Source: a virus
Direction: 5' to 3' (one strand)
Length of the DNA: 42,820 nt
Virus record (IMG/VR): IMGVR_UViG_3300046534_000753
Location: 1 to 42,820 of that record
In this document: positions 703-41,996 of the stretch, piece after piece
Numbering within the stretch: position 1 is the stretch's first letter
Layout of the letters: the number at the start of each line of letters is the position of its first letter
The notes under the pieces: generated by a model
What the model saw: the letters and a program-made list of their open reading frames with translations, nothing else
Database searches by the model: none
What the model was told of the DNA's origin: nothing
Position numbers and translations under genes: made by a program

Positions 703-877
703 CAGACGCCTCCCCCGTCAGATAATCAGACAGCGCCTTGAGGACGGCATATGTTGGGTTGGCGTTCCTGCCGCTGCGGATTGCTGAGACGGTCCCGCGT
801 GACAATCCAGTCTGTGCCGCGACGAAGCCGGGAAGCCGGTCGCGCAGGCCCTCTTTGACTTTAGGCAGTGTTAACAT
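695..877 (-). CDS. Small Cro/CI-type helix-turn-helix regulator
   Basis: This 60-residue protein starts MLTLPKVKEG. Residues about 17-48 (FVAAQTGLSRGTVSAIRSG) form a lambda-repressor-like helix-turn-helix, and there is no oligomerisation domain, as in Cro-type proteins. The start was set at 877 because AGAGGTG lies 4 bases upstream; longer frames run through the divergent promoter. It is transcribed away from the recombination operon and sits next to a perfect 7-bp inverted repeat at 913-939. It therefore probably controls both directions, as Cro/CI proteins do. It heads the leftward early operon. Confidence 0.85.
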   Translation of the reverse strand: MLTLPKVKEGLRDRLPGFVAAQTGLSRGTVSAIRSGRNANPTYAVLKALSDYLTGEASDG

Positions 878-908
878 TTCGCACCTCTGTTTAAACTGTT
901 GCACGTTA

Positions 909-943
909 TGCCTATTGACTTGCGCGCGGCTTGTCAATAGATT
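909..943. promoter_or_regulatory. Interleaved divergent promoters with operator-like inverted repeat
   Basis: TATTGAC (913-919) and GTCAATA (933-939) are perfect inverted repeats. Rightward, TTGACT (915-920), a 17-bp spacer and TAGATT (938-943) resemble a sigma70 promoter for the erf operon. Leftward, TTGACA (complement of 932-937), a 17-bp spacer and TAGGCA (complement of 909-914) resemble a promoter for the regulator. Each half of the palindrome contains one -35 box, so a dimeric repressor bound here would block both directions. Confidence 0.65.
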
Positions 944-998
944 GGTCGTGCGGCGGGTGGAAAACTGGCCGCGACACAACAGGGAATGGAGCAAAGCA

Positions 999-1610
999 AT
1001 GATTGACACGCCAAACGGAATGCCAATAAACGCGGCGATTGAGGCGCTCGTGAAAGCGCAGCAAGAAATGGGCGCGGTCCTCAAGAACGCAAAGAATCCG
1101 CACCTCAAAAGCAAATATGCAGACCTTGGGTCAGTCATTGACGCGACGTTTCCAGCGCTCCACGCCAACGGGTTTGCGGTAATGCAGCCCGCCGGGATGG
1201 ACGATATGGGCCAGTTTGTCGAGACGCATTTTTGCCATATCAGCGGCAAGACATTCAGCAGCCGCATCTATCTTGTCATCGGCAAGAACGATATGCAGGG
1301 CGTTGGCTCGGCTCATACTTACGCGCGCCGCTATGGCCTGCTGGCAATGGCCGGGGTTGCTCCGGAAGACGACGACGGCGAGGCGACAAAGGCACCAAAG
1401 CGCCAAGATGCGCCGCCGCCATTTAACGCCGCCGCCTGCGAAACTCGCTTGCGCCATGAGATGGCAAAGCTGAAGACCAAACAGGCGCGGGCAACGTTTT
1501 GGGAAAACGAAAAGCCAGCCTTTGGCGCAATCAAGGATGCCGACCCCGCCGCCTATGCCACGCTGCGCGAGGATTTGGGCGCGCTTGTCCTTGAGGACGC
1601 AGGCGAATGA
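999..1610 (+). CDS. erf: ERF-family single-strand annealing recombinase
   Basis: This is a 203-residue protein of the ERF superfamily. These proteins coat single-stranded DNA and anneal complementary strands in phage recombination or recombination-dependent replication. Diagnostic parts are the N-terminal segment around residues 20-45 (GAVLKNAKNPHLKSKYADLG), and HTYARRYGLLAMAGV followed by an acidic EDDDGE stretch near 110-130, where ERF proteins carry YARRYAL..L. The C-terminal ~70 residues are a more variable helical region. GGAG lies 7 bases before the chosen ATG. It is the first gene of the rightward operon and is coupled by ATGA to the NinB-like gene. Confidence 0.92.
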   Translation: MIDTPNGMPINAAIEALVKAQQEMGAVLKNAKNPHLKSKYADLGSVIDATFPALHANGFAVMQPAGMDDMGQFVETHFCHISGKTFSSRIYLVIGKNDMQGVGSAHTYARRYGLLAMAGVAPEDDDGEATKAPKRQDAPPPFNAAACETRLRHEMAKLKTKQARATFWENEKPAFGAIKDADPAAYATLREDLGALVLEDAGE

Positions 1611-16541: not shown

Positions 16542-17797
16542 GGCCGCACGCCTTGCTCAATCCGCTTGCGAAGGATTGTCACCTGTTGTTCAATAGGCAT
16601 TGACGAAAACGTAACAATGTCAAAGTTTGGCGACTGCATAAGGCTGTTTAGTCCAGCGCTCATTTGATCCTCCGTCAGGGGCGGCGCAGCGGGCGGCTCT
16701 CCGAGGCCCGCCGCCGGCGGAGGCGTGCCGGACGGGCTGGGTTCTGGATTTCCTTCTTGCCCGTAAAACTCGTTAATCGCATAAATCAATGGATTGGGGA
16801 TTTCGGCGTTAACATCGCCGCGCAAGGTAGCTCCAAGAACTTCTTGATAACCGTCGCGCATGGCCCGCTTAAATTGGATAGTCTCGAGCGTATCGCCAAC
16901 TTGTGCAAAATACATTCCCTTGATGCGGGTGTATTCTTCCGGTGTTGCCGCTGCACCCGTGGCGAGACGCAGAGCGCCTTCAGCCCAAGCGCCGCCTGCG
17001 GATTCATACATCTGCCCCTCAGTGCTTCGCAGCCAGTTACCGCCCAAAACACCAGACGCGAAACGGTCTTGAACATTAGACGGGTCGAACCCTTCTGCTT
17101 CGATCCGATTGATAGCGGGCGCTGTTTGGGATTGCATGTTGTTAAACATGAAAATCCGCCGTTCGCTTTCTGTCATGTCATAGTCAGCGCCCCCCGAATT
17201 GGGATCCAGAAGGCCCGCATCAATGTCCGCTTGGCGCTTGCCGTCCGGCGATTGCGGAGCAGGCCCTGACGCCAGATCACGCGACCTAATCATGGCGTCA
17301 TAGGTGTCCTTCCCTTGCGCCATTAGGTTCTGCATCCCTGCGACATCCGCCACAGGGGGGAGGCCAAATTCTGCAATTCGGGCATTGAAACCCGCCACGT
17401 CGCCGCTTTGAACAAAAGGAACCGCGCCCACAAGGCCTTGGCGGACCTCCTCAGCCATAGCATCCCTTTCGTTCTTGGAAAGCGTGGCCGCGTGGGTTTG
17501 GATCGCCCGCAACTCAGCGGAATCTGCGCGCGAGTTAGCCTGCGTCCGCACATCCATTACCTGCCGCGTGTTTTGCACGCCAAGCGCGGCCTCCGGGCCT
17601 GCAAGCGCCGCATATTGGCCCAATGCCTGCTCGTCGCCAGCCATAACAGCGCCGCCGTTCGTCTGCATGAATTGCTCAAGCGCGTTGTTGCGTCGGTTTT
17701 GATTGGTCAGCCCAGCCGCTGCCGTGCCCTGCTGAATGGCCTGCAAAGCGTTGACGCCTTGGCCCATCATTGGGATGTTCGTGTTCATTGCGGCCAT
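16538..17797 (-). CDS. Ejection (internal virion) protein (419 aa)
   Basis: This 419-residue protein is Gln/Ala/Asn-rich in its first third (MAAMNTNIPMMGQGVNALQA). It is helical in the middle, with a Pro-rich linker near 350-375 (EPSPSGTPPPAAGLG) and a short C-terminal helical domain. Such compositions are common among podovirus DNA-injection proteins. Its ATG shares one base with the stop of the M15-like gene, so the block is translationally coupled. Confidence 0.75.
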   Translation of the reverse strand: MAAMNTNIPMMGQGVNALQAIQQGTAAAGLTNQNRRNNALEQFMQTNGGAVMAGDEQALGQYAALAGPEAALGVQNTRQVMDVRTQANSRADSAELRAIQTHAATLSKNERDAMAEEVRQGLVGAVPFVQSGDVAGFNARIAEFGLPPVADVAGMQNLMAQGKDTYDAMIRSRDLASGPAPQSPDGKRQADIDAGLLDPNSGGADYDMTESERRIFMFNNMQSQTAPAINRIEAEGFDPSNVQDRFASGVLGGNWLRSTEGQMYESAGGAWAEGALRLATGAAATPEEYTRIKGMYFAQVGDTLETIQFKRAMRDGYQEVLGATLRGDVNAEIPNPLIYAINEFYGQEGNPEPSPSGTPPPAAGLGEPPAAPPLTEDQMSAGLNSLMQSPNFDIVTFSSMPIEQQVTILRKRIEQGVRP

Positions 17798-18444
17798 TAT
17801 GCCCTCGCCCTTTGGGGGTTGCCCACGTTAAAGCCCGATGTGTCTAGCGCGTTCATCCGCTGCGACATAAATTCGCGCGGGTCAATCTGCATGGACGCCA
17901 TTTGGGGCCGCTCAAGCGCGTTCTGTGGCGCGCCTGGCCGTTGTTGGGGTTGTTGTTCGCCTGCGGGTCCGGCCAGTGCATTGCCCGCTGGTGGTGAGTA
18001 GGTGCCCTGAGCGCGATTGCCGTCACGCGCACCAGCAAGCTCCACTTGCCACGGCTCCCAATCCATAGGGACCGCCAAGCCAAACCGCTCGGCGTTGGCC
18101 CGCAGCCATTGCGCTTCGGCGCTGCTCGCGTCACGCAACAGCCCGCCATCTGCCCCAGCAAAGTCAACCGCCGTTCCATAATTGTGCTGTGAATTGCCCG
18201 GAGGCGCGACCCATTTGCGCGCGGCCTCTGGCGACCCGTACCTTTCAAGAGCGGCTTCATAAAGCTGGCCCTGCAATTCCGGCGAGCGATACGCCGAGGT
18301 AATCCGCAGAGCGCCAGGGCCAAGATCCTGCTCAGCCGCCGTTAACATCTGCGAAAGGTTATCGCGGAATGACGGATTTAAGCTGGTGAAGCTATCGCCA
18401 CGCGCCGCTGCGCCTCCAACTGCGTATTGGGTCCAGTCGACCAT
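17797..18444 (-). CDS. Virion-associated M15-like peptidoglycan peptidase with a replaced zinc ligand
   Basis: This 215-residue protein has the M15 (VanY/D-Ala-D-Ala carboxypeptidase) core at about 45-136: ITSAYRSPELQGQLY, then SQHNYGTAVDF with zinc ligands His87 and Asp94. The third motif, normally E-P-W-H, reads EPWQVE, with Gln133 in place of the zinc His. The Gln/Pro-rich C-terminal tail resembles neighbouring ejection proteins, so it likely rides in the virion and opens or binds the cell wall during DNA entry. ATG 18444 lies one base after the previous stop. Confidence 0.82.
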   Translation of the reverse strand: MVDWTQYAVGGAAARGDSFTSLNPSFRDNLSQMLTAAEQDLGPGALRITSAYRSPELQGQLYEAALERYGSPEAARKWVAPPGNSQHNYGTAVDFAGADGGLLRDASSAEAQWLRANAERFGLAVPMDWEPWQVELAGARDGNRAQGTYSPPAGNALAGPAGEQQPQQRPGAPQNALERPQMASMQIDPREFMSQRMNALDTSGFNVGNPQRARA

Positions 18445-18445
18445 G

Positions 18446-19156
18446 CTAGTATTCCCAGCCGGACGAGAACGGCATTTGCGTCTGCCTCTCGCCGAGGTTG
18501 CTAATCGCATTCATTGGCGAATTGGACTGTTTGTTGTTTTGGTTCTGGCCGAGGCCCTGCTGATATTGGTAAAGCCCCATGCCGTTTTGAATGGTGCCGC
18601 TGATTGCGTTGCCCACGCCGATTGAGCCAGCCGCCTGCGCGTTGCCCATGTTGCCCAGGGCGTTCGTCACGCCGGAAAGATTATTGGTCTCCGCTGCCGC
18701 TGTCTGCGCCGCTGCGTTCTGCCCGCTAGACGCCAAGCCGCCAAGACGGTCAAGCTGTGAGTCGCGGTCAGACTGAGCAAGCCCCATGCGGTACTGCTCA
18801 AGCGCCTGCATTGCGCGGCCTGAGTTAAGCCCGCCGCCATACGATGCGCCAGCCTCGATTGTGTCCCGGCCCTGCTCAAGCGCGAACTTGGACGCCGGGG
18901 TCATGGATATGCCCTGCCAGCTTTCCGGCTGGTCGCCTAAGCCCATCTCGTATTGCAGCGCGTTATATGCTCGTGACCCGCCTTCGCGGTAAGGCTCCAA
19001 GTCGCCACGGATAATATCGCGCGTCTTGCGGGATTCCTCTAGCTGAGCCTGCGCCGCGCGCTCTTGTGCGTCGGCTGCATCGCTGGCAGCATTAGCCTGA
19101 GAAACGCCGCCAATAATGCTGGCACCGCCCATTACTGCTGAGATTGGATCAGGCAT
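18446..19156 (-). CDS. Ejection protein, P22 gp7/T7 gp14-like (236 aa)
   Basis: This 236-residue protein starts MPDPISAVMGGASIIGGVSQ, a Gly/Ala-rich hydrophobic N-terminus. It continues with a charged coiled coil (AADAQERAAQAQLEESRKTR) and a motif near 50-75 (GDLEPYREGGSRAYNALQYE) found in small DNA-transfer proteins of podoviruses. The C-terminal third is Gln/Asn/Gly-rich. It probably forms the outer-membrane part of the ejection channel. Confidence 0.82.
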   Translation of the reverse strand: MPDPISAVMGGASIIGGVSQANAASDAADAQERAAQAQLEESRKTRDIIRGDLEPYREGGSRAYNALQYEMGLGDQPESWQGISMTPASKFALEQGRDTIEAGASYGGGLNSGRAMQALEQYRMGLAQSDRDSQLDRLGGLASSGQNAAAQTAAAETNNLSGVTNALGNMGNAQAAGSIGVGNAISGTIQNGMGLYQYQQGLGQNQNNKQSNSPMNAISNLGERQTQMPFSSGWEY

Positions 19157-19601
19157 TGCGGGTCATTTCCTCGGTAAAAGCTGTTCGACCTTCGCCATAT
19201 GTGCGCCAGATTTCTGGCCCGCATTTTAGCGCGTGTTCGTGTCCGCCTATCAACCAAGAAACCACGTGAAAGACCCGATAAAGGCCAGCACGCAGCACCC
19301 ATGCTTTCCCTATATCATCTTCCGAACCTTTTTCCAAGACGTTAGCTGCGGTCCAATCTAAATACATCTGCAAAAGTGCTGGCTTTAGGACGTGAGTGTT
19401 TGCCGCAAGGAACGGATCGCGCATTGCTTCAAACGATAACCAGTTCAAAACCGCGTTGTGATTGCCCGCGCCCTCGTCCTCTAGGTCGTCCCATTGCTGA
19501 GCCGCTTCCCACAGGTCAGACGCGAACCGGATTGCGCCGGGGTCGCCCATAAACCACTCGGCAAAGAACGGGCGCAGCATGTCTAGGCGTGCATCGCTCA
19601 T
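19149..19601 (-). CDS. Hypothetical helical protein in the ejection block (150 aa)
   Basis: This 150-residue, probably all-helical protein begins MSDARLDMLRPFFAEWF and contains LWEAAQQWDDLEDEGAGNHN near 30-49. An acidic DDLED after a helix superficially recalls isoprenoid-synthase DDxxD sites, but the second motif is absent. It overlaps the neighbours by 8 and 4 bp. It may be a small virion or assembly protein; the family is not recognised. Confidence 0.65.
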   Translation of the reverse strand: MSDARLDMLRPFFAEWFMGDPGAIRFASDLWEAAQQWDDLEDEGAGNHNAVLNWLSFEAMRDPFLAANTHVLKPALLQMYLDWTAANVLEKGSEDDIGKAWVLRAGLYRVFHVVSWLIGGHEHALKCGPEIWRTYGEGRTAFTEEMTRNA

Positions 19602-21544
19602 CTGTAAATGTCCTTCATAAATGCCAACTCAGGCGCAAGCGGGGGTAATTCCCGGCGTTCCTCGGGCTGACGTGATTGCGCGGCAATGCCAACAGCGCCA
19701 GCGCCCGCCACGCCTGCGGATAGGTTGCGCAGGTGCGAGAGGCGCGGGTCAAAGCGGGCGAACTTGCTGCGGATGTTGGAGGGGTCGAAAGTGACGCGCT
19801 CAGTTTGCCAATCTGGGGCGTCCCCATATAAATCGCGGTCGTTTCGCATTTGCGTTCCGTCATACCCCAAACTTGATATGTCACGAGTTCCGCTGCGCGC
19901 GTCGTTAGCATTGCCAAAAGGTAACTGGCCCTCTGGCCAATTCATGTGCTTCCCAGCAATGCGAACCGGGATTATATTCTGGCCTATTTCCGCCTCGTCG
20001 TAGTTTGCATATCCAGCCGCAACTTCTGGGTCTGTGTCTGTCGTCACGCCTCGGCCATACCACCCTGGGTCTTTTTGTCCAAACCGCGCGGGGTCAAACT
20101 CTGCCACCACTTGATCGGTCCCATGGTATCCCTCCCCTGGCAATCTTTCATCAGCCCTTGCCATTCGGCTTGGCGTATCCATCGGCATATCAACGCCCGT
20201 CGCCCCGCTGGTATATAGCTGGTGCAATTCCTGCGGGTCGGCCTGCGCGTATAGCTCGTCTGTGACCTCATCCGCGCGGCCCTCGCTTAGAAGGCGCGCT
20301 ATCTCTTGGGCGGGGGTTGCGGGAATGTCTGCCGAATATGCGGTGTCGCCCCCAAAATCAACGATTTGTTCAGCGTCGGGAACGTCCTGAGTGGCCCAAG
20401 GTGGTGTTTCAATTCGCCGTGCTGGCGACATGGCCGCGCGGAGGCTTGCGTTTCTAGACTCAACCTCGCCTGCTGAGTTGTTGTAGTTCTGGCGCGCGGT
20501 GGCATTGGCTGTGGAAGTGTCAAATTCCATAAGCGAATTATACTCATCGGACAGAGGCGTAAGCCTTGGGTGAGACGCCCCGTATCCGTGCAGGCCCTCC
20601 TCTGCTCTTACCTTGTCCATTTGCGCTGAAAGTTCGCGCTTCCTTATATTTCGGCCTTCGTAAATTTTTGACAATTCCCGCTCCGGGCTAGACCCCCGTG
20701 CAAAACCTTCACGGCCCTGAATCCCGTGCTGCACTTCGTGCAGGAGGACGGACCGCCCCTCTACGCTGTCTGCTGCGCCAATTTCTATGTCTCCGGTGCG
20801 GTGGTTATACGATCCTGATGTCCTGGCGTTTCGGGTCGAGTTAACAAACCCCTGCCCTAAATCTTCATACGCGGCTTGATAGCTTTTCCCGCGCCGGTCT
20901 CCGCCTAGAAGCTCTTGATGCAACATTGCTCCGTCAAGGTCTGTTCTTAGATTTTGACCTGCTTCGCCATTATTAAGAAGGCTTGCAGCATCCTGACGCA
21001 TGACGGACCCGCTGTCGTCAATTTCAAAGCGCATCCTGCCATCAATGCCACGGAACCAACCAGTGTCGCGCAACACGTCATCGCGCGATGCGCCGCCTTC
21101 CAGCATATCTTCAGCACGCGCGAGAGTTTCGGTGTCAGCCGTCGCGGCATTGCGGCCAGCGAACATGTTGAGCACATTCGGGTCATAAGCCCGCACCCCT
21201 GCGTCCACCACAGACTCAACGCCCTGACGAACAGACGACGCGCCACCCGGCATAAGCATCATAGCGCCAGCGCCAACCATAGCCGCGCCAGACGCCGCCC
21301 TGTCCATTGGGCTACGGTCGGGCGCAAACATATCACGACCCGCCTGCTGCGCCTCCATAACGTCTGCTCCGGGCGATATCATAGCACCAGCTTGCGCCAG
21401 TGCGTTAACCCGCGGCGCAATATCCGGCCCAAGCGCATAATCTAGCGCATTGCCAAACTGCTCCTCTTTGCCGGTCAACCATTGGCGACGTTCTTGCCCA
21501 GATTCAGCGCTGAAAAACTCTGCTATGACGTTCTTTAGGCCCAT
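19598..21544 (-). CDS. Polyvalent-type virion effector: zincin-like metallopeptidase plus ADP-ribosyltransferase-like domain
   Basis: This 648-residue protein has, in order: an Ala/Gly/Met-rich hydrophobic segment at about 82-102; TGWFRGIDGRMRFEIDDSGS (161-180), typical of large polyvalent proteins; a zincin-like motif LLHEVQHGIQGREGFARGSS (267-286) with HEVQH at 269-273; and AGEVESRN (358-365), where the third zinc ligand (Glu) is expected. From 472 an ADP-ribosyltransferase-like domain follows: GYHGTDQVV, GRGVTTDTDPEVAAGYA (497-513) and VTFDPSNIRSKFARFDP (584-600). A catalytic Glu of the ART is not obvious. It lies between gp10-like tail factor and ejection proteins, so it is probably injected with the DNA to modify host targets. 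The role is inferred from domains and position. Confidence 0.85.
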   Translation of the reverse strand: MGLKNVIAEFFSAESGQERRQWLTGKEEQFGNALDYALGPDIAPRVNALAQAGAMISPGADVMEAQQAGRDMFAPDRSPMDRAASGAAMVGAGAMMLMPGGASSVRQGVESVVDAGVRAYDPNVLNMFAGRNAATADTETLARAEDMLEGGASRDDVLRDTGWFRGIDGRMRFEIDDSGSVMRQDAASLLNNGEAGQNLRTDLDGAMLHQELLGGDRRGKSYQAAYEDLGQGFVNSTRNARTSGSYNHRTGDIEIGAADSVEGRSVLLHEVQHGIQGREGFARGSSPERELSKIYEGRNIRKRELSAQMDKVRAEEGLHGYGASHPRLTPLSDEYNSLMEFDTSTANATARQNYNNSAGEVESRNASLRAAMSPARRIETPPWATQDVPDAEQIVDFGGDTAYSADIPATPAQEIARLLSEGRADEVTDELYAQADPQELHQLYTSGATGVDMPMDTPSRMARADERLPGEGYHGTDQVVAEFDPARFGQKDPGWYGRGVTTDTDPEVAAGYANYDEAEIGQNIIPVRIAGKHMNWPEGQLPFGNANDARSGTRDISSLGYDGTQMRNDRDLYGDAPDWQTERVTFDPSNIRSKFARFDPRLSHLRNLSAGVAGAGAVGIAAQSRQPEERRELPPLAPELAFMKDIYR

Positions 21545-21546
21545 AG

Positions 21547-21693
21547 TTACGGCTCCAGCGCTGTGATGCGTGCTTCGTGGTCTTTAAGCATATTTATCAT
21601 CCGCTCAAACAGCTTCATGCCCTCAAGCGTCAACCTGCCATCAGCGTCAATATATTGCTCAATCAGCACGGGTTCTAAAAGTTTAACGGTCAC
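21547..21693 (-). CDS. Small protein between gp10-like gene and polyvalent effector (48 aa)
   Basis: This 48-residue protein is read from GTG 21693, which overlaps the stop of the gp10-like gene (GTGA) and has GAGG 7 bases upstream. A longer frame to 21756 would overlap that gene by 67 bp with no better start. The sequence ends in a charged helix (LFERMINMLKDHEARITAL). It could be a small coiled-coil tail component; unknown. Confidence 0.65.
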   Translation of the reverse strand: MTVKLLEPVLIEQYIDADGRLTLEGMKLFERMINMLKDHEARITALEP

Positions 21694-23054
21694 GCTGCCA
21701 CCTCGATCCGCGCATCCGATAGCAACGAAAAGTCTGTCGGGTCGGTCATATTCCACTCAACTGTGAACTGCCGCCCAGCGCCAAGCCTGCGGTAAACCAA
21801 GCGCTTATCATAGTCGCCCAAATCACCCACACTGCGCTGCATTTCATCGCCATAGGTTAGGCTGTTGTCTCGACTGATCCTGATATAGCAGGCAGCATCG
21901 CGCCCCAAATCAGACCGCCCGAAGCGCCCGCGAAACTCTAGCGCCGACACGCCAAACCGCGCGCCGTCTAGGTAGAGCGTGCGCGACACCGCTGTGCGCC
22001 GCATTACCGCGCCGTTGTCTGTGTTTGCCTTGCCAAGCGTGCTGAGCAAGCCGCCCTCGGTCCCGACAACCCACGAATTTCCAAGACGTACCGAACAGGA
22101 CGCCGACCAACTGCCAAGAGTCACGCCCTCAGCCCGTTCGTGCCATTCGCCAGTAGACATGTCATAACACCATGACGGGCGGTTTCTAAACCGAACAACG
22201 CAAATCTTGTGGCCCTCGTCCTCATAGTAAAAGCACGATTTGGGCGTTTCCGCCGTGATAGCGGTCTCAACCGCCGGGATGGATATGGGCTGCAACTGCG
22301 CGCCGCTGACAAGGTAGCAGATCCCGTCGTCACCGACAAAGAACCCGCCGCCGTCCAGCTTCGTGATTAGGTTGTAGCCCTTCAAGCCAATGTCCCGGAC
22401 GCCCCCGGCAAGCCTGGTGAATGCGCTTGATCCGCTTTGCCCGCTCAACGTCCAAATCTCGTGGCTGTCGCTCTTGAACAGCCAATAGTTGCCGTTGATC
22501 TCAAGCCCCCGGATTAAATCGCCGTCCCGCCCTTCCGCCGTGGCGAAGTTGAGCGCAGGCAACGTGGTCGCGTCGGCCAGATCCGTCCAGCAAAACCGCC
22601 TGCCGCCGTATTCCGTCAACAGAGAATAGTTGCCGAGGAAATCAACAGACCCAAAGTCGTCAAACTGACCCGCCGTGGGCTGTGCGATGGTTGCCCCGTC
22701 CCAAGTGTAATAAAGCCCCTCGCCAGCAATCGTCACAACGCCGTTGTTTGCTGCAACAGAGCAATTTTCGCCCACAACAACAGCGCCAAGGTTTTCGACA
22801 CTTCCTGCCGATGAAGCCTTAAACAGTTGATTATTCGCCACGGCGTAGGCAATCCCGCCCGACAACCCGATTTGCCGAACCAACAGCGTTCCGGTGTCTG
22901 CAAGCTCGGTCATGCCTAGAACGGTCTTCAACAGGTACTGCGCCTGCCCCATTGATGCGATAGGCTCACGATACAGGTTAACCAGCCGCGACGATTGCGC
23001 GAATATGGCATCACTGTCTTGGGCGGATTGCCCTACAAACTCAAGTGTCGGCAT
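21690..23054 (-). CDS. P22 gp10-like tail factor (packaged DNA stabilisation protein)
   Basis: This protein of about 454 residues begins MPTLEFVGQSAQDSDAIFAQ, then SSRLVNLYREPI. That opening is typical of the P22 gp10 (Phage_stabilise) family, which extends the portal-gp4 assembly and plugs the DNA channel. The body shows the repeated blade-like pattern expected for its beta-propeller, e.g. SVDFLGNYSLLTEYGGRRF and ALNFATAEGRDGDLIRGLE. The start at 23054 leaves a 14-bp overlap with the gp4-like gene; an in-frame ATG at 23105 gives 17 more residues and cannot be excluded. Confidence 0.85.
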   Translation of the reverse strand: MPTLEFVGQSAQDSDAIFAQSSRLVNLYREPIASMGQAQYLLKTVLGMTELADTGTLLVRQIGLSGGIAYAVANNQLFKASSAGSVENLGAVVVGENCSVAANNGVVTIAGEGLYYTWDGATIAQPTAGQFDDFGSVDFLGNYSLLTEYGGRRFCWTDLADATTLPALNFATAEGRDGDLIRGLEINGNYWLFKSDSHEIWTLSGQSGSSAFTRLAGGVRDIGLKGYNLITKLDGGGFFVGDDGICYLVSGAQLQPISIPAVETAITAETPKSCFYYEDEGHKICVVRFRNRPSWCYDMSTGEWHERAEGVTLGSWSASCSVRLGNSWVVGTEGGLLSTLGKANTDNGAVMRRTAVSRTLYLDGARFGVSALEFRGRFGRSDLGRDAACYIRISRDNSLTYGDEMQRSVGDLGDYDKRLVYRRLGAGRQFTVEWNMTDPTDFSLLSDARIEVAA

Positions 23055-23706
23055 ATGGCCCCGCGAAAAATACTGACCCTTCACGGTCAAATTGAAGCGC
23101 AGCATTCAGTGTTGATTGCGCCCTTGGGGCAAGCATGGAAAGCGGAGCCATCAGCATATAGCTTTCGGCAACCCGCGCGCCTAGCCCGTAAAGCGTGGCC
23201 TCCCACCATTCGGCTGGAACGTCCAAGACTGAATCCGGGTCTGTCACGTCTTCAAACTCGCGCTCGTATGTGTACTCGATTGTCTCGCCCGCTGCGGTCG
23301 CCAGCACAGGCCAAACATACAATTTCGCGGCCTCACGCTGCCGATCATAATAGAACTGCGTGGGAAGCCCCGTGGACGTCTTCTGAGGCAGGTTGTCATA
23401 CTCCTGCCGCGTCATCACTTGCATGGGAAGCTCAATGCCACCTTGCTTGAGGCGCGCAGTGATAATCTGCATGGGCCGCACGGGATCTAGCGTGTAGCTG
23501 AGCGCCGTGGTCAGGGTCAGGCTTCCGTTGGTGTAGGTCCAGATGTTGTAGCCGGACATTTGCCAAGCCTTCAGCATCATATTCAGCAACTCCACAGCTT
23601 CCGCCATATCATCGCCGCTTGGCGTTTCGCTCATGCCAACAACCTGCGCCTTGCGTAGCGCGCTGGTGCATATGGCCCTAACGGTCTTTGTTCCGGTGAC
23701 GGCCAT
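23041..23706 (-). CDS. P22 gp4-like tail accessory (head-completion) protein
   Basis: This 221-residue protein begins with ICTSALRKAQVVGMSETPSG and has EAVELLNMMLKAWQMSGYNI (about 36-55), the hallmark of gp4-like adaptors that bind under the portal after packaging. The strand-rich centre and GLGARVAESYMLMA near the end also fit. It joins portal and gp10-like protein and supports a short-tailed particle. Confidence 0.88.
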   Translation of the reverse strand: MAVTGTKTVRAICTSALRKAQVVGMSETPSGDDMAEAVELLNMMLKAWQMSGYNIWTYTNGSLTLTTALSYTLDPVRPMQIITARLKQGGIELPMQVMTRQEYDNLPQKTSTGLPTQFYYDRQREAAKLYVWPVLATAAGETIEYTYEREFEDVTDPDSVLDVPAEWWEATLYGLGARVAESYMLMAPLSMLAPRAQSTLNAALQFDREGSVFFAGPYADT

Positions 23707-40609: not shown

Positions 40610-40894
40610 CTATTCCACAGCCTCAGCCCTCACCCGCTTTGCAAATGCGTGTGCCTCGTCGTCAGTGCGGATTATTTCATGGCACCCGCTCCAGCGCCTC
40701 AAAAACGCCACCTGTGGGGCCGTCAGCTTTCCTATGGGCGTCTTGACCTCGACTAGGTAGCTGCGCCCCCCATAGCCCACTACAGCGTCACACGGCAGGT
40801 CCATAGGCTCGACTGTGAGTCCGTATGCTCGGAGAATGGCGAATATCTCAGGCTCGTTGCCGTCTCGCTTGGCTTTGGCGGGGGGTCTGCGCAT
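40610..40894 (-). CDS. VRR-NUC-like PD-(D/E)XK nuclease (94 aa)
   Basis: This 94-residue protein has an N-terminal helix GNEPEIFAILRAYGLTVE. Then comes DLPCDAVVGYGGRSYLVEVK (33-52), the nuclease core with Asp37 and E-V-K, and KLTAPQVAFLRRWSGCHEII. This is the VRR-NUC layout (short, single domain), used to cut branched or structured DNA. A replication/recombination role fits. Its start shares a base with the methyltransferase stop. Confidence 0.82.
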   Translation of the reverse strand: MRRPPAKAKRDGNEPEIFAILRAYGLTVEPMDLPCDAVVGYGGRSYLVEVKTPIGKLTAPQVAFLRRWSGCHEIIRTDDEAHAFAKRVRAEAVE

Positions 40895-41643
40895 TAGAGG
40901 TCTAGCCCTGATTGCTGTGGTGCTTCGTGTGCGCCCTGAATCCGCTTAGACGCCAGCGCAAAATAGTCCGCGTCCATCTCGATACCGATAAACGAGCGGC
41001 CAAGGTTCTTGCACGCAACGCCTGTGGTTCCGCTGCCCATTGTGAAATCCAGCACGGTTTCGCCTGCGTTGGTGTAGGTGCGGATGAGATATTCCATAAG
41101 GGCGACGGGCTTTTGCGTGGGGTGGAGCTTGCCTTTGTCCCTTTTAAACTGCAACACTGTTAATGGGTATCTGTCGCCATTGCTGACTGTTACAGCCCCC
41201 GTCTGCGCGCCGTAGTTCTGGCTTTTGGTCGCACCCTGCTTGCAAGTATAGGGCTTAAAGCCCGTCCTCATTTGCGGGTTGTAAGCTGGCAACCTATCGT
41301 AAAAAACTAAAATGTTTTCATGGTTTTTTAAAGGCATCTTCCTTGCGTTTAGGTGCCCGGTCCCCATTTCCTTTTGCCATATCCACTCCGTTTTCAATGC
41401 CGTAATGTTGGAGGCACCCAATACCTTATCAAAAGGCGATTGAGCCATCAGCACAATAGCACCATTTGGCTTGATGATCCGCCTGAGCTGCGCCCACATC
41501 GGCGCGAACGGGATTACCGTATCCCACTTGCACGCCGTCGTGCCGTAGGGAACATCCGCCAGCACCATATCGACCGACCCATCGGGGATATCCGGCATGG
41601 CTTGCAGGCAATCCGCGTTGATTAGCTGTCTTTGAACGGTCAT
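40894..41643 (-). CDS. DNA methyltransferase, N4-cytosine/N6-adenine type (249 aa)
   Basis: This 249-residue methyltransferase has the catalytic motif in the form DVPY (30-33, ADVPYGTTACKW) and then the SAM-binding motif FTMGSGTTGVA (200-210). The target region lies between and KLHPTQKP at 172-179. Catalytic motif before SAM motif is the beta-type order. It may protect phage DNA from restriction; no partner endonuclease lies nearby. It starts in the stop of the next gene (ATGA). Confidence 0.92.
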   Translation of the reverse strand: MTVQRQLINADCLQAMPDIPDGSVDMVLADVPYGTTACKWDTVIPFAPMWAQLRRIIKPNGAIVLMAQSPFDKVLGASNITALKTEWIWQKEMGTGHLNARKMPLKNHENILVFYDRLPAYNPQMRTGFKPYTCKQGATKSQNYGAQTGAVTVSNGDRYPLTVLQFKRDKGKLHPTQKPVALMEYLIRTYTNAGETVLDFTMGSGTTGVACKNLGRSFIGIEMDADYFALASKRIQGAHEAPQQSGLDL

Positions 41644-41996
41644 AGGTCTAGCCCTTCTTGCGTTGGGGGTGGCGCTGGCTGCGCTTCCGATATGAGCGCC
41701 TGGAGGATTGCGATTAGCCATGCGCGGGCGGGGTTAGCGTTGTGGGTTTCCTCGTAAATCTTACCGTCGGTAGGGTGGCCGACAAGGAAATGCCCATCAT
41801 CGCTGTAATAAGACCACCCCCACCCCGGCAGCACCGCATCATGCAGCGCCTTGGCCTCGTCAATTGAACCTAGAAAAGCGCCTTCTGCAAGTGTCGCATC
41901 TTCCCACCCAAAAGCGCCAACGCCCATATGAAAAGGCAACTCCCCCGCCTCAACCTTTGCCAGCAACTCGATTAGTGCGTCTTTACGTTCAGTCAT
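41640..41996 (-). CDS. Hypothetical phage protein between methyltransferases (118 aa)
   Basis: This 118-residue protein has EAKALHDAVLPGWGWSYYSD, then GHFLVGHPTDGKIYEETHNA and NPARAWLIAILQALIS, a recognisable small alphaproteobacterial phage family. A compact alpha/beta protein; function unknown. ATGA overlaps on both sides tie it to the two methyltransferases. Confidence 0.75.
   Translation of the reverse strand: MTERKDALIELLAKVEAGELPFHMGVGAFGWEDATLAEGAFLGSIDEAKALHDAVLPGWGWSYYSDDGHFLVGHPTDGKIYEETHNANPARAWLIAILQALISEAQPAPPPTQEGLDL

What the first reader, a model, noticed from the sequence alone, without database searches (positions are those of the whole stretch)
19598..21544. Probable injected effector combining zincin-like peptidase and ADP-ribosyltransferase-like domains
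The 648-residue protein has HEVQH plus a later GEVESRN, as in zincin-type domains of polyvalent proteins, and a C-terminal YHGT...GRGVTTDTDPEVAAGY...FDPSNIRSKFARFDP block that resembles ART domains. It sits among the ejection proteins, so it may enter the cell with the DNA and cut or modify host proteins before any phage gene is expressed. The pairing in one virion protein is the best candidate here for a new host-takeover or anti-defence system.
Basis: partly seen in the sequence, partly recalled or inferred. Interest (0 to 1): 0.88.

Follow-up and report, generated by a model that had tools for sequence, protein, structure and literature searches.

The report
Swappable injected enzyme of a phage
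A bacterial virus carries, among the genes for proteins it ejects into its host, a protein that joins a probable protein-cutting enzyme to a probable ADP-ribosylating enzyme, and related viruses swap these enzyme parts like cartridges, which suggests a fast-changing tool for taking over or disarming the host cell.

Summary
The 648-aa ORF is real (minus strand, 19598-21544) and lies between a P22 gp10-like head-closure gene and ejection genes. It contains LPD23 (2.7e-22), a zincin-type domain (HExxH plus E360) and a C-terminal ART-fold domain. It is a small polyvalent protein, a known kind. Injection is inferred, not shown.

A near-identical phage, L004, has the same N-terminus, linker and tail, lacks LPD23-zincin and has an unlike ART core. 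Among 44 usable sequences (946 pairs), 44 pairs share the N-terminus (>=55%) but not the core (<35%); 12 show the reverse, 7 of these without detectable upstream similarity. The place before the linker may be short or hold LPD23-zincin, GNAT, ParB-like or a second ART-like stretch. L020 lacks the gene except its last eight codons, yet keeps the downstream gene, which is thus probably no dedicated immunity gene.

The window's ART is atypical: T501 stands where most relatives have Tyr, in the window and its 5 closest aligned homologues, and E582 replaces the Asp described for this clade. Verdict: a cassette-swapped variant of phage polyvalent effectors.

The parts
19598..21544 (-). effector gene, 648 aa
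   Evidence: single open frame from ATG
21179..21544 (-). constant N-terminal part, residues 1-122
   Evidence: first 120 residues 97% identical to L004, 65% to L019, 68% to L053 (same contig as L017); no local match upstream of the linker to L028 or L033, which share the core
21008..21166 (-). LPD23 domain, residues 127-179
   Evidence: Pfam PF18838 2.7e-22, above cut-off
20330..21007 (-). zincin-like metallopeptidase domain, residues 180-405 (bounds approximate); together with LPD23 absent from L004, L017 and L019
   Evidence: AF2 model with LPD23 pLDDT 88.8, pTM 0.84; absence in relatives
20726..20740 (-). HEVQH zinc-binding motif, residues 269-273
   Evidence: present in 15 of 15 aligned rows, of which 6 relatives were found without this motif as bait
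20450..20470 (-). GEVESRN, residues 359-365, with third zinc ligand candidate E360
   Evidence: E360 in 15 of 15; E362 in 14 of 15
20150..20329 (-). constant linker (TPAQEIARLLSEGRA...MPMDTPSRMARA), residues 406-465
   Evidence: 96% nucleotide identity to L004; median pairwise identity 56% in the family against 28% for the core (the family was collected by linker and tail patterns)
19775..20149 (-). variable ART core, residues 466-590; H474, T501 and E582 in the three catalytic-motif positions
   Evidence: AF2 model and VIA-align matches; motif columns
19598..19774 (-). constant tail (RSKFARFDPRLSHLRNLSAG...), residues 591-648, and stop
   Evidence: 96% identical to L004 over 45 residues; first 22 residues median 73% in the family (same caution)
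19149..19601 (-). downstream 150-aa gene overlapping the effector stop; kept where the effector is lost
   Evidence: phrog_21390; 94.7% identical in L020, which lacks the effector
18446..19156 (-). DNA ejection protein (P22 gp7-like position; P22 gene order recalled)
   Evidence: phrog_598, 4.4e-27
17797..18510 (-). VanY/M15 peptidase beside the ejection genes; its middle part differs in L004 and L020
   Evidence: PF02557 4.9e-17
21690..23105 (-). head closure protein (P22 gp10-like, name recalled)
   Evidence: phrog_578, 3.2e-63

Best explanation
The gene encodes a small, cassette-built polyvalent effector that is made late, packaged in the podovirus head and ejected with the DNA. Shown: a constant chassis (N-terminus, linker and tail) carries two exchangeable enzyme places. 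Place 1, before the linker, here holds LPD23 plus a zincin-type metallopeptidase domain. Place 2, between linker and tail, holds an ADP-ribosyltransferase-fold core. Inferred: the N-terminus fits the protein to its own virion; the zincin cuts the protein itself, freeing the ART, or cuts a host protein; the ART modifies host or defence macromolecules with NAD before phage genes are expressed; and selection by varied hosts and defences drives swapping of the cores.
For: LPD23 2.7e-22. Zincin ligands in 15 of 15 aligned rows, with the bait caution for HExxH but not for E360; order three strands, HExxH helix, insert, helix with E360 in a confident model; 16 viral predicted structures at E<=0.001, 7 of them named large polyvalent protein-associated. 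ART: H474 in 25 of 25 aligned; ART-PolyVal hit in 19 of 25; of 50 displayed VIA-align rows 49 are ART-superfamily chains by title or by my recall, and the remaining one, tied for first, is a cyanophage A4 pre-ejectosome chain (Z 6.4, rmsd 3.7, 113 aligned). Position beside head-closure, DNA-ejection and VanY genes. Family context: 28 of 49 downstream neighbours match virion structural family phrog_2941 and 6 of 49 portal family phrog_1216; the commonest family among 45 upstream neighbours is a terminase large subunit (phrog_2, 9 of 45). Exchange: L004 against the window; 44 of 946 pairs with like N-termini and unlike cores, 12 of 946 the other way. Accessory gene: deletion-like scar in L020. 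Other domains in the family: GNAT (best-represented profile in 4 of 47 members), ParB-like in 1 of 47.
Against: No proof of virion content or injection. The ART model is middling (pLDDT 69, pTM 0.51); its VIA-align Z-scores (best 6.4) lie in the range that models without a clear match also reach (note), and Foldseek gave no solved structure at E<=0.001 (best 0.025, PARP4, TM 0.28). The window's ART match is below the Pfam cut-off. T501 and E582 differ from the H-Y-D set, so activity is uncertain; three family members lack the His. Sequence-profile searches of solved structures found no ART and no zincin. Foldseek's best solved zincin has E 0.21. Linkage of this zincin to this ART core rests on the window contig alone: L002 (residues 1-464) and L003 (424-648) each cover one side. 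Confidence was lowered from 0.66 to 0.64 after I saw that the HExxH motif had served as bait.
Confidence: 0.64

Rival explanations
1. The zincin is mainly a self-processing protease. It cuts the chain, perhaps at the linker, before or after ejection, and has no host target; only the ART acts on the host.
For: Iyer et al. proposed this for MPTases in polyvalent proteins, from phage P1 DdrB processing (section read). The cassette lies just before the linker.
Against: Members without the zincin (L004, L017, L019) keep the linker and tail, so this protease is not part of the chassis. N4 vRNAP, RP4 TraC1 and pSa ArdC are packaged or transferred uncut (same section).
Confidence: 0.4
2. The C-terminal domain is an ART-fold pseudoenzyme that binds NAD, ADP-ribose or a partner, or serves a structural role.
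For: T501 at the Tyr position in the window and 5 homologues; the third motif residue is Ser in 6 of 25 aligned members; L090, L091 and L102 lack the first-motif His at the usual place.
Against: H474 in 25 of 25 aligned and E582 in the window and the same 5 homologues; cores occur as whole units in phages with unlike N-termini.
Confidence: 0.2
3. A toxin of polymorphic-toxin type with a cognate immunity protein, used by lysogens against competitors, as proposed for MuF toxins.
For: A small gene follows directly (150 aa); core exchange resembles polymorphic toxins (MuF passages).
Against: The 150-aa gene is 94.7% identical in L020, which lacks the effector, and 97% identical in L004 with another core, unlike an immunity gene. 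No Mu-F match in Pfam at E<=1. No integrase among the 17 window ORFs that I scanned with Pfam; most ORFs were not scanned.
Confidence: 0.1
4. A late-expressed moron protein that acts in the producing cell (for example superinfection exclusion or lysis timing) and is not packaged.
For: Variable gene, absent from L020; packaging not tested.
Against: Place among head and ejection genes in this phage; structural neighbours across the family; ART-model match to an ejectosome chain.
Confidence: 0.15

Closest known systems
Phage polyvalent proteins (Iyer et al. 2017, PMC5512222)
   Same: LPD-type domain, zincin and ART in one chain; encoded with virion genes; predicted injection
   Different: Most relatives here are about 320-680 aa; fixed N-terminus, linker and tail with two exchange places; near-identical phages differ in cassette. 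My searches found no report of this, but they cover open-licence papers only.
ART-PolyVal / Tox-ART-HYD2 clade
   Same: ART-like model, His in strand 1, profile similarity of most relatives
   Different: H-T-E instead of the described H-Y-D; window below the Pfam cut-off
Phage T4 Alt (R-S-E ART, packaged and injected; from Iyer section 9)
   Same: Model for how it could work: an injected ART that modifies host proteins
   Different: Different active-site class (His, not Arg, in strand 1); here fused to a zincin
MuF polymorphic toxins of temperate phages (Jamet et al. 2017, PMC5576092, passages)
   Same: Phage-borne constant part with variable enzymatic part
   Different: No MuF domain found, constant parts on both sides of the core, no immunity-like downstream gene
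Cyanophage A4 pre-ejectosome chain (PDB 9k3a_B)
   Same: A stretch within its residues 949-1602 aligns with the ART model (Z 6.4, 113 residues)
   Different: No sequence match found. The A4 paper is not held, so I do not know whether its authors call that part an ART; the title does not say.

Membership tests
Polyvalent proteins | two or more domains of disparate activity in one chain | tested here: met
   LPD23, zincin motif and fold order, ART-like core; activities themselves not tested
Polyvalent proteins | encoded among virion morphogenesis genes | tested here: met
Polyvalent proteins | injected with the DNA | not testable with these tools
   needs virion and infection experiments
LPD23 (PF18838) | profile match above curated cut-off | tested here: met
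   78.8 bits against 27
Zincin-like MPTase | HExxH plus a downstream Glu ligand | tested here: met
   15 of 15 aligned rows; HExxH was bait for 8 of them, E360 was not
Zincin-like MPTase | strands before the HExxH helix, then a helix with Glu | tested here: met
   DSSP of a model with pLDDT 88.8
Zincin-like MPTase | fold match to solved zincins | tested here: inconclusive
   top Foldseek rows are ArdC, PprI and meprin, but E>=0.21 and poor TM; VIA-align rows follow the helical insert
Zincin-like MPTase | peptidase activity | not testable with these tools
   -
ART-PolyVal (PF18760) | profile match above curated cut-off | tested here: not met
   16.3 bits whole protein and 19.7 bits domain, cut-off 31.2; best of 25 aligned relatives has E 1.5e-10
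Tox-ART-HYD2 | His in strand 1 | tested here: met
   H474 in strand 471-476
Tox-ART-HYD2 | Tyr in strand 2 | tested here: not met
   T501 in strand 500-503
Tox-ART-HYD2 | Asp in strand 5 | tested here: not met
   E582 in strand 581-585, which I take as strand 5
ART superfamily | ART fold | tested here: inconclusive
   49 of 50 displayed VIA-align rows are ART-superfamily chains by title or recall, Z 5.4-6.4, but the model has pLDDT 69 and Foldseek's best E is 0.025; I take the fold as likely
T4 Alt/VIP2 (R-S-E) ARTs | Arg in strand 1 | tested here: not met
   His at that place
MuF polymorphic toxins | MuF domain | tested here: not met
   no Pfam Mu-F match at E<=1
MuF polymorphic toxins | downstream immunity gene | tested here: inconclusive
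   the 150-aa gene is conserved without the effector in L020, which argues against it

The most novel reading that the evidence does not exclude
A previously undescribed two-place polymorphic ejection effector. A constant chassis (virion-specific N-terminus, linker, tail) delivers enzyme cartridges that move between phage lineages, the counterpart on infecting virions of bacterial polymorphic toxins. The window member pairs a zincin with a non-canonical H-T-E ADP-ribosyltransferase whose changed second motif gives a new target or chemistry, possibly to block a host defence in the first minutes of infection.
Probability: 0.4. Interest if true: 0.78.

Novelty: new variant of a known kind. Interest (0 to 1): 0.62.

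Why it matters
If right, one gene position in many environmental phages is a natural library of ART cores, and of a few other enzyme domains, selected for action in the first minutes of infection. The linker and tail give a search handle: one scan of viral contigs gave 259 relatives. Comparing cores across phages with near-identical backbones would let one ask directly what each injected enzyme counters. The H-T-E set would widen the known range of ART catalytic sets if it is active.

Tried and rejected
DNA search of phage records with the region gave no match. NCBIfam gave nothing. The first genome-contig scan (alignment A1) gave 99 pattern matches, none confirmed. The second (A4) gave 111 pattern matches, 7 confirmed, at 28-51% identity; four titles are alphaproteobacterial (Rhodobacterales, Mesorhizobium, Bauldia, Bradyrhizobium), the others a Gammaproteobacterium, a Planctomycetota bin and an unnamed bacterium. 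I did not analyse these loci further. Profile searches of solved structures gave only chance-level hits, as did single-sequence searches. The solved-structure fold search of the LPD23-zincin model was uninformative because the helical insert filled the VIA-align list. A cognate immunity gene was considered and set aside (see rivals). Degeneration of the ART was considered; H474, T501 and E582 are all kept in the window and 5 homologues, which speaks against it. An assembly chimera was considered: L004, L019, L017, L038 and L042 are separate contigs with the same layout of parts, but the window's own cassette combination is spanned only by the window.

Papers: PMC5512222 abstract, sections 8 and 9 and passages; PMC9503650, PMC10386132, PMC10684548, PMC12810830 and PMC5576092 passages only; all others only as search listings. 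The A4 ejectosome paper is not held. AcrIF11, RES, NatT and MbcT as ART-fold proteins, and P22 gene names, are from recall.

Counts: one search kept 80 of 259 relatives and collected them by linker and tail patterns, so conservation of linker and tail in that set is partly by construction. I left out L027 and L002 (near copies of the window) and used 78; 55 remained after removing near-duplicates. L102 was lost by my linker pattern, so 54 plus the window were segmented. One search's first count (60 and 15 of 1225 pairs) took the first 120 residues as N-terminus even where these ran into the linker; one search repeats it with the first 100 residues and drops 11 of the 55 for short or incomplete upstream parts, leaving 44. 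Of its 12 core-alike pairs, 5 (all with L083) still show weak upstream similarity (28-35% over 43-87 residues). The Pfam scan of full proteins used 47 of the 55; eight partial or very long ones were left out. Neighbour scans used 49 downstream and 45 upstream genes, those found on the contigs. One search's regular-expression count of second-motif residues is unreliable and not used.

Full report
Observation. The window is a 42.8-kb virus record. The ORF at 19598-21544 is on the minus strand, 648 aa, ATG start. The neighbours are, upstream, a head-closure protein (phrog_578) and, downstream, a 150-aa protein of phrog_21390, a DNA-ejection protein of phrog_598 and a VanY peptidase. The coat protein's best match among phage records is an environmental Caudoviricetes record at 56%.

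LPD23 and zincin. LPD23 is certain (2.7e-22). In 15 aligned rows, window included, H269, E270, H273 and E360 never vary. Eight of the rows (L005-L016) come from a search with HEVQHGIQ among its patterns, so HExxH is partly a bait there; the six rows found otherwise (L025, L026, L038, L042, L104, L105) all have it, and E360 was never bait. The AF2 model of residues 118-408, from the window and 11 viral-contig rows, is confident (pLDDT 88.8, pTM 0.84). It shows three strands (residues 233-238, 243-246, 253-257), a helix with HExxH, a long helical insert and a helix with E360. That is the order Iyer et al. give for zincins of polyvalent proteins (section read). Against viral predicted structures 16 hits have E<=0.001, seven of them named large polyvalent protein-associated. 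Against solved structures the result is weak: the first rows are ArdC, PprI and meprin, but with E of 0.21 or more, and VIA-align follows the helical insert.

ART. The window's domain scores below the ART-PolyVal cut-off. Nineteen of 25 aligned members, window included, match that profile at E<=1, best 1.5e-10. The model is middling (pLDDT 69, pTM 0.51). Foldseek's best solved match has E 0.025 (PARP4; TM 0.28), none at E<=0.001, but most of its top 50 are PARPs. Of 50 displayed VIA-align rows 49 are ART-superfamily chains by title or by my recall: MbcT, tankyrases, diphtheria toxin variants, ParT, RES, NatT, AcrIF11, PE-like toxins. The other, tied for first, is a chain of the cyanophage A4 pre-ejectosome (Z 6.4, rmsd 3.7, 113 aligned), whose own annotation I could not read. 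Z-scores of this size alone prove little, but no row is known to me as another fold. H474 lies in strand 1, T501 in strand 2, E582 in strand 5. In 25 aligned sequences the second position is Y in 13, T in 6, W in 4, S in 1, E in 1. The third is E in 13, S in 6, and other residues in 6. The six T sequences are the window, L028, L029, L030, L031 and L032, and all six have E in the third position. So the change is kept, not a random loss. Outside the 25, L090, L091 and L102 lack the first-motif His at the usual place.

Cassettes. Against L004, each 200-base step of the window from 25762 to 21963 rounds to 100% identity. The next four steps, to 21163, show 88-100%; residues 123-404 have no counterpart; the linker is 96% identical; the two steps over most of the ART core show 47% and 41%; and from 19762 to 18563 identity is 88-96% before a second drop in the VanY gene. 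At protein level window-L004 is N 97%, linker 98%, core 29%, tail 96%. Window-L028 is N 28%, core 65%, with no local match upstream of the linker. L004 shares its core with L079 (69%) but has no local match to it upstream. L053 (same contig as L017, with no match to the window's other structural genes that I compared) has the window-like N-terminus (68%) and the core of L037 (56%). Over 946 pairs of 44 usable sequences, 44 pairs have N>=55% and core<35%, and 12 have core>=55% and N<35%; 7 of the 12 have no local match upstream. Shuffled cores give 21.6 +/- 3.1%, maximum 32.2%. Thirty-eight of the 44 pairs come from one set of related phages (L047-L099), so they are not independent; the other six are window-L004, window-L053, L004-L019, L004-L053, L028-L035 and L034-L042. 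Exchange in both directions is thus seen in several groups.

Caution on the chassis. The family was collected with linker and tail patterns, so the family-wide medians (linker 56%, tail 73%, core 28%) favour linker and tail by construction. L004 and the window, compared after a search with patterns from the whole protein, show the same layout directly.

Place 1. Of 43 complete single-linker proteins, 23 have 200 residues or fewer before the linker stretch and 20 have more (the limit is arbitrary). Filled examples are LPD23-zincin (window, L038, L042), GNAT (4 of 47 scanned), ParB-like (1 of 47), and, by an HG[ST] motif alone, a second ART-like stretch (L031, L065, L076, L089). L042 has the window's LPD23-zincin at 51% identity with another core (31%). 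The two places therefore vary independently in that pair.

Loss. L020, 81% and 84% identical in the two matching stretches next to the gap, runs from the small gene after the head-closure gene directly into the last eight codons of the effector frame (AFMKDIYQ, stop) and the 150-aa gene. This looks like a deletion; insertion into such a site is less likely because those codons match the effector's own tail. The 150-aa gene stays 94.7% identical there, so it is unlikely to be a dedicated immunity gene.

Context in the family. Of 49 downstream neighbours, 28 match virion structural protein phrog_2941 and 6 portal family phrog_1216; the commonest family among 45 upstream neighbours is a terminase (phrog_2, 9 of 45). 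This supports, but does not prove, packaging. Seven weak relatives lie in cellular genome contigs, four of them alphaproteobacterial by title, which hints at the host group of the family.

Mechanism. Best-supported: packaged, ejected with the DNA, zincin for self-processing or for a host target, ART modifying host or defence molecules. Shown here: domains, conserved residues, gene position, cassette exchange, loss. Inferred: packaging, ejection, both activities, targets. T4 Alt is the working model for an injected ART, as described by Iyer et al..

Known and new. Polyvalent proteins with these domains, predicted to be injected, are known, and ARTs near head genes are known (PMC9503650 passages). 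I found no report of the two-place exchange with constant linker and tail, or of the H-T-E core, in searches, which cover open-licence papers only and which I saw mostly as listings. The general shuffling of domains in phage proteins is known (PMC10684548 passages).

Noticed in passing
window 17797-18510; L004 6489-7166; L020 4067-4720: The VanY/M15 peptidase beside the ejection genes is also partly swapped: L004 and L020 share its last part (L004 also its first residues) but carry another HDHGGAGD-type middle part without a Pfam match at E<=0.01.
   Followed up: partly
L022 6618-7139: Another contig has an ORF that looks GNAT-like by eye (not scanned) in the slot between its head-closure and ejection-protein genes.
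   Followed up: no
L010 7463-16093: A very long ORF (2877 aa or more, reaching the contig end) holds two LPD23-zincin units in a row, each with HExxH and GEAEAR.
   Followed up: no
L064, L073, L084, L100: In large proteins (1149-1614 aa) the linker-ART-tail unit lies near the N-terminal end, followed by long further sequence.
   Followed up: no
window 738-1610 and 40894-41721: ERF-family protein and an N6/N4 DNA methylase; a phage annealing protein of the ERF kind might help short-homology exchange at the linker (speculation).
   Followed up: no
L106-L112: Seven weak relatives of the ART half in cellular genome contigs, four alphaproteobacterial by title; prophage context not examined.
   Followed up: no
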